Below the pieces are notes generated by a model that saw nothing but the letters and a program-made list of their open reading frames with translations, had not been told where the DNA came from and did not search any database. From positions 868,001-932,000 of the forward strand of contig CALYLX010000127.1 in NCBI GenBank assembly GCA_944990035.1: a stretch of DNA of 64,000 nucleotides, written 5' to 3'. Positions 1-3,240 of this stretch are shown here, in pieces. Within the stretch, counting starts at the first letter, position 1, and the number at the start of each line of letters is the position of its first letter. A program made the translations under genes and the position numbers. This DNA comes from Clitopilus passeckerianus. Lineage: Eukaryota; Basidiomycota; Agaricomycetes; Agaricales; Entolomataceae.

Positions 1-3000
1 TCTCACTGATGGTCAACGTTGCAGCGCATTGGAGAAAGTTCGACTCTGCGTCCAATACCTGTCGCGGAAAACACCTCTTCAACGATTCTTACAACGGCAA
101 GAAATCTCAGAAAGCATTAAGAATGCTCATCAGTGTTTGGACTCCTGCATTGAACTCTTCCAGGCATGTTTTCCGATCGTACCCTCTTGCATCACACATT
201 AACACTCTTATCTTGCAGCTTCAAAGCGTGATCTCACTCAAGTTCACCATCGCTGACCACGAAACGGCCCATCAGAAAGACCAAGCGCAACTGGCCCAAA
301 CCCTAGAGCAGCTACAGAAGAACGACGCGAATATCTTAGAAACTCTAGAATTGAGGAACGATCAACTCATGGAGGCGGTCCGCGGTCTTCGAGATGTGAT
401 TGAAAACCTACCCGTTATCACATAGCTACTAACCCCTCCGTAGAATCTGCAAAGAGGCATAGAGGATGCAGTCCAGCGACGTTTCGCGACCGCCAGCTTA
501 CGAACGTTGCTAGAAAGACAGGCAGAATCGTCTTCGTCGCAAGTTACGTCCTACGAATGGGCGGTCTCCTCACTTGAGGTTCTCATAGAAGGGGATATTC
601 TGGGTTCGGGAGCATTTGGGACGGTGTACGCGGGTCGGTGGAATGGAACGAAGGTTGCTGTCAAGCAGCTTTCCAAAGGAACTCCGAAGAAGGTACGGTT
701 ACACTTATCGTTTGAAGGCCAATGCTGACTGGCTTCATCAGCTTCTCATCAAGGAAATTGAAATTTGGCGGAGAATGCAACATCCCCACATCGCCTCGTT
801 CTTCCGGGCCTGTCTCGATTCAAACCCGCCACTACTGGTCTCGGAGATGTATAATTTTGGCAACACTATGGTTTACCTTGATGAATACCCAGAAGCAAAC
901 CGTGTTCGCTTGGTATGTAGTCACTTTACGTATCAATGCAGCTTCTGATTCACTTTATAGTGCCACGAAATAACTCTCGGGATGGTCTTTCTGCACAAAC
1001 ATAAGATCATCCATGGTGACCTCAAGCCAGCGAATGTCCTAGTTGATAACGCGCATCGGGCTCGCATAACCGACTTTGGTCTCTCGAAAATCAAGTCCTC
1101 CATGACAACACAAACAGTCAATGATGTTTCCCAGACGTCTATGTCCAGCGCACCCGGGACGAAGGTGTTCATGGCACCCGAGCGTTTGAGGCGAGGAACG
1201 ATGAGCTATGCGACTGATGTTTATGCATTCGCCATGTCTGCCTTCCAGGTATTTCGACTCTACGCTAGAGGGCCCGTAAACTTTCTCATCTCGGCCTCGT
1301 TAGATTTTCAGTGGTGAAGCTCCTTTCCAGCACCTTCCAGAAGAAGAAATCAGGCAGGCGGTCGTTGTCGACCAAGAACGACCAGACCGACCCGAGGATG
1401 AAGACGCTGCAGAGCGGGGGCTCGATGACGAAATGTGGACGCTACTGGAACGTTGCTGGGCGGACAACCGTACCTCTAGGCCTTCGTTCCAAGAAATTGC
1501 TGCCCTCCTGGAAGCCTGGTTGGGGCCTAAAGCGGCACCGTGTACAAACAGCAAGACAGACTTGAGCGCATCAAATAAGCGAAGTGCGTATTTTTTGATT
1601 TTCTCGCCTTCTTTACTCGTATCAACTCCTCCGGAAGGAAACCTTACACCTGTCACGCCATCGCCTCCTGGGACATTGAAAACGCTGGAACGCAAGCCGA
1701 CACTCCCTAACATTGACTTGGACTCCGGCGTTGCTCATGAAATACCTGGAACGGATGTTGTCATTGGTGCTTCAGACTTCCAGGTCATCCGAAGTCCCGA
1801 ACTATCAGACGCAGCCTCTCTAAAGTCCCCAGGATCCATTCAGTTCACACCGTCTGGAACTATCAACGAAGACGCTTCGGACTACTTCTCCGTCTTCAAG
1901 GCTATGGATGATTATTCTCCTCCAAGTGAGTACTAGTGTCTACTATTCTCGTCTCCGTTATGGTACTCACCGGCTTGTCAGGTCTGGACACTTTCTCTCC
2001 GCCTACCCCGCCTACCATCCCATCCTCTTCGGAGCCAAGCACGCCCATTTCAATACCTACCTCAACACCTCCCTCTATCTCATCGCCTCCCTTAACACCT
2101 ACTACAACCCATCGTAGGCAAAGCTCAGCCCCTAAATCATCAAATTGGTTCAGGCGTTTCTTTTCCAGTGCGTTAAATGCATTAAGTGACTTACCCCGAA
2201 CTGAGATGAATACCTTCAGATTCAGAAAAAGAGAAACAAGCTCGAAGACATTCCGAGGTTCCTCACACAACCACTGAGCTACGACCGACTGAACCTCCTG
2301 TGAAAGAGGAAGAATGGGATCCTAACCATCTCCAACCTCTACCTGAAGGTCGGAGCAAGAAGCATCGGCAGTCGGCGGCATCCAAACAAGAACGGGATTA
2401 CCAGCTTATCAAGTCCAGCCGGCCAAAGGAGCATCGCGCGAAGCTGGTTATTGTTGGTGACGGAGCATGTGGCAAGGTAACATAGACCACTGTTCGACAT
2501 GAAAATCAGACTCATTGTTTCTCTCAGACGTGCCTGTTAATCGCATTCTCGAAGAACAAGTATCCGGAGGTAATTTTGATTCTGAATGCTTTCCATCGAC
2601 GACTGCTAAGACGAATACTACAGGTATACGTACCGACTGTCTTTGAGAACTATGTTGCAGAAGTCAGTATTGTCAGCCATAAGATCGAGTTAGCGCTTTG
2701 GGATACAGCCGGTCAGGAGGATTATGACAGATTGCGACCTATGAGCTATCCCGATGCTCATGTCTTCCTAATCTGCTTCACCATTGACACACCAGATTCG
2801 CTAAGCAACGTATGGCTCAAGGCATGTTATTCCATTTCATCTTTGAATATTTGAACAATCGACTGAGTTCTTATGGTCAGTGGATTTCCGAAGTACGACA
2901 CTTCTGTCCTGAGGTGCCGATTGTCCTTGTCGGGTGTAAACAAGATCTGCGTAACGACGAGCGTACCCTGAAAGAGCTACAGAGAACTATGCAGTCACCT

Positions 3001-3240
3001 GTTACGGTCGAGCAGGTTAGTTCCCCTCTTCACCTGCTGCACCAATTTCCGCAGCTGACATTACTTCCGCAGGCAGAGGCAGTAGCCGAACAAATCGGTG
3101 CAGTCTGCTATCTGGAGTGTAGCGCGAAACATGGTGATGGTGTTAGAGAGGTATTCAGGACAGCAACCACCTGTGCGCTTGGAAGCATGCTACGGGAGCA
3201 GGAAAGGAAAGGCAGAGAGAAGAGCTGTATTATTGCGTGA
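1..3240 (+). CDS. MLKL-like NTD / TKL kinase / Rho GTPase fusion (5' partial)
   Basis: The gene enters from the left edge. Exons read: 25-163, 219-395, 444-692, 742-912, 961-1248, 1304-1925, 1982-2167, 2220-2476, 2528-2569, 2624-2821, 2881-3015, 3073-3240, giving 876 residues in frame. Residues 1-105 are helical with LQRFLQRQEISESI and a coiled-coil-like tail, resembling the four-helix N-terminus of MLKL-type proteins in agarics. Residues about 155-440 are a kinase of the TKL type: GSGAFGTV P-loop, VAVK lysine, HGDLKPANV catalytic loop (HGD instead of HRD), DFG and MAPE. A Pro/Ser/Thr-rich linker follows. Residues about 685-876 are a full Rho GTPase: GDGACGKT, effector VPTVFENY, DTAGQED, GCKQDL, ECSAK and C-terminal CIIA for prenylation. 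Two introns appear to be GC-AG. The kinase could be signal-controlled and the product membrane-anchored; that is inference. Two adjacent genes are the alternative, but the Rho part has no Met of its own. Confidence 0.75.

What the first reader, a model, noticed from the sequence alone, without database searches (positions are those of the whole stretch)
1..3240. Kinase-Rho GTPase fusion with an MLKL-like N-terminus
Seen: the kinase frame continues through a Pro/Ser/Thr-rich linker and two in-phase introns (1926-1981, 2168-2219) into a full Rho GTPase with CAAX box CIIA. The 86 codons between the last splice site and the P-loop are open and contain no Met; an in-frame TGA (2207) precedes them, so the Rho part has no start codon of its own. 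Known: MLKL-type proteins pair a helical bundle with a (pseudo)kinase in cell death, and Rho GTPases normally stand alone at about 200 residues. Inference: one polypeptide carries a death-like or membrane-acting bundle, a TKL kinase and a prenylated switch. I know of no described protein with this order.
Basis: partly seen in the sequence, partly recalled or inferred. Interest (0 to 1): 0.87.

Follow-up and report, generated by a model that had tools for sequence, protein, structure and literature searches.

The report
Death-type kinase fused to Rho switch
A fungal gene is predicted to make one protein that joins a helix bundle resembling the cell-death protein MLKL, a protein kinase and a copy of the Rho1 molecular switch with a predicted lipid tag, and it likely works as a built-in alarm that responds when Rho1-type signalling is disturbed.

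Summary
With exon 1, which lies just upstream of the window, the locus gives a 14-exon, 940-residue reading frame: MLKL-type helical bundle, kinase with intact catalytic motifs, P/S/T-rich linker, Rho1-type GTPase ending in CIIA. The second haplotype keeps the same exons and frame; dN/dS is 0.03 (bundle), 0.04 (kinase), 0.32 (linker), 0.02 (Rho). No Met lies between residues 606 and 814, so the Rho part has no start of its own. The Rho part keeps all four introns of this genome's ordinary rho1, at the same positions and phase, with three identical exon lengths: a captured rho1 gene. The bundle matches MLKL_N proteins far above decoys. The same order occurs in predicted proteins of Tulasnella and Mycena. 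The closest relative, from Tetrapyrgos, has a Ras-type GTPase in the same slot. My preferred mechanism, a membrane-anchored death-type kinase with an integrated Rho sensor, is inferred; transcripts, cell death and sensing are untested. Seven searches of open-licence papers found no description. New variant of a known kind.

The parts
25..163 (+). exon 2: MLKL-type bundle (exon 1, with the ATG, is at -275 to -31, upstream of the window)
   Evidence: same exon in the allele
219..395 (+). exon 3: bundle, C-terminal part
444..692 (+). exon 4: end of bundle and kinase N-lobe (GSGAFG, VAVK); kinase domain starts near 591
742..912 (+). exon 5: kinase
961..1248 (+). exon 6: kinase catalytic loop HGDLKPAN, DFG, APE
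1304..1583 (+). exon 7: kinase C-lobe (to about 1504) and start of linker
1584..1637 (+). probable intron 7 (54 nt, GT-AG); in frame if retained
1638..1925 (+). exon 8: P/S/T-rich linker
1982..2167 (+). exon 9: P/S/T-rich linker
2220..2476 (+). exon 10: end of linker and Rho P-loop GDGACGK; no Met
2528..2569 (+). exon 11: Rho, 42 nt, same length as rho1 exon 2
2624..2821 (+). exon 12: Rho switch I PTVFENY and switch II DTAGQEDY, 198 nt as in rho1 exon 3
2881..3015 (+). exon 13: Rho, VGCKQDL, 135 nt as in rho1 exon 4
3073..3240 (+). exon 14: Rho ECSAK, C-terminal CIIA box, stop

Best explanation
The locus is predicted to encode one 940-residue protein in which an MLKL-type helical bundle and a kinase with intact catalytic motifs are joined by a long linker to a captured, CAAX-ended Rho1 GTPase, and it likely works as a membrane-anchored cell-death-type receptor whose Rho domain is the built-in sensor. 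Proposed steps: (1) shown at DNA level: one open, selected frame with no separate Rho start, its Rho part derived from a duplicated rho1 gene. (2) Inferred: CIIA is prenylated and holds the protein at the membrane beside real Rho1. (3) Inferred: the Rho domain reads the state of Rho1 signalling, or is hit by whatever attacks Rho1, and the change is passed through the linker to the kinase. (4) Inferred: the kinase, acting in cis on the bundle, releases or assembles it, so the molecule would unite what RIPK3 and MLKL do as two proteins; the outcome would be membrane damage and death of the hyphal compartment.
For: One protein: 14 exons, open in two haplotypes, dN/dS 0.02-0.04 in all three domains, no internal Met before the P-loop from residue 606 on. 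Rho1 capture: four shared introns and three identical exon lengths; best solved match is a GTP-binding protein rho1 (8etd, E 6.7e-83). Bundle: hhalign score 82.7 to four MLKL_N-type proteins, maximum 17.9 in 100 decoys for this query set; a profile of six bundles ranks seven MLKL sequences first in the PDB, best E 9.4e-9. Recurrence: 6 of the 120 listed Rho-bearing proteins (of 224 matches) have a kinase, and 3 of those 6 also an N-terminal bundle. Exchangeable slot: Ras-type GTPase in the Tetrapyrgos relative, RasGEF in two Cyclocybe/Agrocybe kinase proteins, one with a scored MLKL_N. Rho is also joined to PF17111 (HeLo-like) N-termini in 9 of the same 120. GTPase motifs are altered in 4 of the 7 other kinase fusions compared: both Tulasnella, Mycena, Ceratobasidium, as expected of bait more than of an enzyme. 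Precedents, from passages read: candidate integrated decoys in fungal NLRs (PMC12258605); pyrin guarding RhoA (PMC11781737).
Against: No transcript evidence. In the window copy all GTPase motifs are intact and under strong constraint, which fits a working switch at least as well as bait; motifs are also intact in the two Diversispora and the Tetrapyrgos fusions, and 7 of the 9 HeLo-like-Rho rows keep DTAGQ. Alone, the window's bundle finds no MLKL chain in the PDB, and a four-row profile without Cyclocybe and the shorter Tulasnella row gives only E 0.007. The MLKL_N proteins came from the window's own search, and one of them (P0261) is below Pfam's cut-off. The bundle's fold was not tested: models had bundle pLDDT of about 45-75. 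Repeated capture is only partly supported: one clade of five basidiomycete fusion Rho domains is rejected (p-AU 0.021), but seven with Diversispora (0.154) and window plus Mycena (0.183) are not. The relatives are automatic gene models. MLKL is a pseudokinase; this kinase looks active.
Confidence: 0.4

Rival explanations
1. Rho domain as output or address: a signalling kinase uses a working Rho1 domain and its lipid tag to sit at growing membranes and engage Rho1 effectors in wall or polarity signalling; the bundle only oligomerises it and no cell death is involved.
For: All GTPase motifs and CIIA intact in the window copy; Rho dN/dS 0.02; kinase motifs intact.
Against: Three relatives with the same order (two Tulasnella, Mycena) have altered switch residues, and the closest one has a Ras-type domain without CAAX; the bundle belongs with MLKL_N.
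Confidence: 0.35
2. Single-chain nucleotide switch: the small GTPase takes the place that the NACHT or NB-ARC domain has in fungal NLRs, so GTP binding directly gates a death effector; no decoy function.
For: HeLo-like-Rho proteins (9 of 120 listed) repeat the plan 'effector domain plus P-loop switch', and 7 of the 9 rows compared keep DTAGQ.
Against: The GTPase is altered in four of seven other kinase fusions; no repeat or ligand-sensing domain was found in the window protein.
Confidence: 0.15
3. Two adjacent genes, a kinase and a Rho, misread as one.
For: No cDNA; unusual fusion.
Against: Open spliced frame in two haplotypes, no Met for 148 residues before the P-loop, in-frame stop upstream lying in the intron, linker with dN/dS 0.32 and an in-frame indel; same order elsewhere.
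Confidence: 0.06

Closest known systems
MLKL / basidiomycete MLKL-like domains (BaMLKL; PMC9815663, passages read)
   Same: N-terminal helical bundle of MLKL_N type, with an extra short N-terminal helix in the (low-confidence) models; in MLKL a kinase fold follows
   Different: kinase motifs intact rather than pseudokinase; long linker and Rho1 domain with CAAX added
Rho1 GTPase of the same genome (L014)
   Same: all G motifs, four intron positions and phases, three exon lengths, C-terminal CAAX
   Different: first exon's ATG and leader replaced by a roughly 745-residue bundle-kinase-linker part; about 72% identical over the best-matching exon
LRRK2 / ROCO proteins (recalled)
   Same: kinase and Ras-like GTPase in one chain
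   Different: no Roc-COR pair; order kinase then GTPase; Rho type with CAAX
Fungal NLRs with HeLo-like N-termini or integrated domains (PMC12258605, PMC9815663, passages read)
   Same: death-type N-terminal domain joined to a P-loop switch or a captured host protein
   Different: no NACHT or NB-ARC domain and no repeats; small GTPase instead
Bundle-kinase-RasGEF proteins of Cyclocybe/Agrocybe (P0244, P0258)
   Same: bundle (MLKL_N scored in P0244 only; P0258 is a partial model) and kinase in the same order, with a small-GTPase theme at the C-terminus
   Different: RasGEF in place of the GTPase

Membership tests
MLKL family | N-terminal MLKL_N four-helix bundle | tested here: met
   profile-profile score 82.7 against decoy maximum 17.9 for this query set; single-sequence Pfam below cut-off, 16.0 of 27 bits
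MLKL family | bundle folds like MLKL | tested here: inconclusive
   models low in confidence over the bundle; structure comparison filled by the GTPase
MLKL family | pseudokinase lacking catalytic residues | tested here: not met
   VAVK, HGDLKPAN and DFG present in the translation
MLKL family | membrane permeabilisation and cell death | not testable with these tools
   needs an expression assay
Rho1 GTPases | G1-G5 motifs and switch regions | tested here: met
   motif table; PDB match to rho1
Rho1 GTPases | C-terminal CAAX | tested here: met
   CIIA; prenylation itself untested
Rho1 GTPases | stand-alone protein of about 200 residues | tested here: not met
   joined frame, no start codon near the Rho part
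TKL-type kinases | kinase domain nearer to TKL than to other kinase groups | tested here: inconclusive
   PF07714 1.2e-46 just ahead of PF00069; best PDB rows mix an EGFR entry (first), CTR1, ABL, RIPK1 and B-raf; no kinase tree was made
ROCO/LRRK2 | Roc-COR tandem | tested here: not met
   Pfam scan finds the GTPase (Ras best, Roc weaker) but no COR
Fungal NLR | NACHT or NB-ARC domain with repeats | tested here: not met
   Pfam scan
Receptor with integrated decoy | domain derived from a host protein targeted by attackers | tested here: inconclusive
   derived from rho1; that anything attacks it is untested

The most novel reading that the evidence does not exclude
Fungi have a class of immune-type proteins in which captured small GTPases (Rho or Ras) serve as built-in bait or trigger for MLKL-type or HeLo-type death domains: a one-molecule counterpart of pyrin guarding RhoA and of the RIPK3-MLKL pair.
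Probability: 0.3. Interest if true: 0.87.

Novelty: new variant of a known kind. Interest (0 to 1): 0.66.

Why it matters
It would place the sensor, the kinase and the killing bundle of a necroptosis-like pathway in a single chain, tied to Rho1, which governs the fungal cell wall (recalled). It makes testable whether fungi guard Rho1 as animals guard RhoA, and points to a recurring death-domain plus small-GTPase design in Basidiomycota and Ascomycota.

Tried and rejected
Two separate genes: rejected on frame, missing Met, allele and shared architecture. Pseudogene: rejected on dN/dS. Local annotation accident: rejected, same order elsewhere. Membership of ROCO or NLR families: not met. Further copies of the fusion in the genome: the DNA search gave only the two alleles, and the protein search (65 matches) gave bundle matches only at those two loci. 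Comparing by eye the lists (83 Ras-family matches; 149 kinase matches, 140 of 424 candidates scored), only these two loci have both domains within 5 kb; both lists are lower bounds. Other MLKL_N genes in the genome: none found at E 1, but that search also missed this gene's own bundle, so it is uninformative.

Weak or failed: the search used a wrongly joined Rho piece (about 14 residues of intron 11 read as protein, P-loop missing), usable only to show the Rho class. Structure model 1 was poor (mean pLDDT 51.9), model 2 better (70.0) but weak over the bundle; no MLKL row appeared in the list, which the GTPase domain filled. Model 2 was not searched. The Phellinidium Sel1-Rho and Lyophyllum proteins were left out of the argument, as their extra parts show no death-type domain by Pfam. 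The Podospora protein P0160 has only sub-threshold alpha/beta-hydrolase matches. One row (P0128, Tulasnella 332) was dropped from the tree, and that row and Tetrapyrgos from the AU tests.

Full report
What is there. The window starts inside a gene. Its first exon, with the ATG, lies at -275 to -31 in the flanking sequence. Joining 14 exons across 13 introns of 48-59 nt (eleven GT-AG, two GC-AG) gives a 940-residue protein that ends at 3240. Pfam finds a kinase (residues 238-490, PF07714, 1.2e-46) and a Ras/Rho domain (749-917, 9.9e-49). The corresponding first 200 or so residues are helical in low-confidence models of two relatives. Residues 501-735 are 40% P, S or T. The protein ends in CIIA.

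Is it one gene. The genome holds a second haplotype of the locus at C102, 93% identical over 1-3240. The same 14 exons are open there, with one 3-nt indel in exon 7 and 1-3-nt gaps in introns 3, 4, 5, 12 and 13. The GC donor of intron 12 is GT in the allele. Synonymous/nonsynonymous differences are 35.5/4.5 in the bundle, 53.5/9.5 in the kinase, 15.5/15.5 in the linker and 26/2 in Rho, giving dN/dS of 0.03, 0.04, 0.32 and 0.02. Neither haplotype has a Met between residues 606 and 814 (607 and 815 in the allele), while the P-loop begins at 754 (755). A separate Rho protein would therefore lack a start near its own domain. Transcripts could not be examined.

Where the Rho part comes from. The ordinary rho1 gene of the same genome (L014) was spliced. 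Its four introns fall after DGACGK, between PE and VYVPT, before WISEV and after VTPEE, all in phase 0. The fusion has the same four, and the three inner exons are 42, 198 and 135 nt in both. The Rho part is thus a captured rho1 gene, introns included, whose first codons were replaced. Its G motifs are unaltered, and a rho1 protein (8etd) is the best solved match.

What the bundle is. Alone it scores 16.0 bits against MLKL_N (cut-off 27) and finds no MLKL chain in the PDB. As a profile of six related bundles it ranks seven MLKL sequences first, best E 9.4e-9. This leans on the Cyclocybe row: a four-row profile without it and without P0183 still has MLKL first, but at E 0.007. Profile-profile comparison with four MLKL_N-type proteins gives 82.7 for window, allele and Tetrapyrgos, and 100.7 with all six fusion rows; 100 column-shuffled decoys reach 17.9 and 19.6, reversed alignments 15.2 and 18.5. 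Against single members of that set the scores are 29.5 and 36.4 (Ectocarpus; decoy maxima 19.1 and 19.7), 42.1 and 74.0 (Cyclocybe), 63.1 and 56.5 (Rhizoctonia). Against nine PigL_N N-termini they are 24.3 and 20.9, against their reversal 16.8 and 18.3. The four MLKL_N proteins were found by the window's own search; three pass Pfam's cut-off and P0261 does not. I conclude that it is an MLKL_N-type bundle, not closely a PigL_N one.

Capture once or often. In a 37-row tree the Tulasnella fusion domains lie among basidiomycete Rho1 (98/98), apart from the window's, whose own place is unresolved. One clade of the five basidiomycete fusion Rho domains is rejected (p-AU 0.021); seven rows with Diversispora (0.154) and window plus Mycena (0.183) are not. 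Several captures are likely, not proven. Of the seven other kinase fusions compared, the two Tulasnella, the Mycena and the Ceratobasidium domains have altered P-loop, switch or DxxG motifs; the Diversispora pair and Tetrapyrgos do not, nor does the window. Among nine HeLo-like-Rho rows seven keep DTAGQ. Some alterations could be gene-model errors.

How it may work. I favour a membrane-anchored receptor: CIIA anchors it (recalled: X = A suits farnesylation), the Rho part is bait or gauge for Rho1, the kinase acts on the bundle in cis. The support is the exchange of GTPase type in one slot, the altered motifs in relatives, the tie of Rho to other death-type N-termini, and precedents read in passages: candidate integrated decoys in fungal NLRs (PMC12258605), pyrin and RhoA (PMC11781737), HeLo/MLKL links (PMC12881547, PMC10197012). 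The main counter-evidence is the intact, constrained GTPase in the window and in several relatives, which suits an active switch or address as well. Hence 0.40 against 0.35 and 0.15.

Novelty. Searches searched open-licence PMC papers and listed none that by title or abstract describes a bundle-kinase-Rho protein; two of them returned nothing. The word GTPase does not occur in the main texts of four papers on fungal NLRs, immunity and cell death that I searched (PMC9815663, PMC12881547, PMC10197012, PMC12258605). A survey of fungal kinases reports a large TKL set in Laccaria, and 'Rho' does not occur in its main text (PMC2838846, passages). A Laccaria paper on kinases and RAS GTPases (New Phytol 2009) was seen only as a citation there and not read. 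The parts are known; their union, with a captured rho1, is a new variant.

Noticed in passing
L015 and L016 (G000:C106:98001-117800), and C106:132779-133276: Array of about seven divergent Rho/Rac-like genes in 33 kb, several in single open frames, with altered switch II residues; some end in a CAAX box (CIVA, CVIS, CVIA).
   Followed up: partly
window 300-1050: Haplotype divergence rises to 11-17% over the bundle-kinase junction, against 1-9% in most other 150-base bins (two others reach 12%), mainly synonymous and intronic; perhaps an old allele or a gene-conversion tract.
   Followed up: partly
window 164-218 and 2822-2880: Two GC-AG introns, both starting GCATGT; the second is GT in the allele.
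   Followed up: yes
P0244, P0258 (Cyclocybe, Agrocybe): Kinase-RasGEF proteins with an MLKL_N-type start (scored in P0244): a small-GTPase regulator in the place of the Rho domain.
   Followed up: partly
P0163, P0168, P0174, P0175, P0177, P0178, P0180, P0182, P0184: Predicted HeLo-like (PF17111) plus Rho proteins, mostly of Ascomycota; I found no description, but only searched for words close to it.
   Followed up: partly
P0179, P0233: Predicted NACHT-ankyrin-Rho protein (family names recalled from the accessions) and TIR-Rho protein (TIR just over cut-off, SAM below it), both from unnamed sources.
   Followed up: no
window 24311-25213, 58597-59550, 61039-63120: Housekeeping-type neighbours: Mo25-like, RGS and EPSP synthase/3-dehydroquinate synthase domains.
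   Followed up: no
G000:C147:1052881-1067759: Cluster of six kinase matches on one strand within 15 kb.
   Followed up: no
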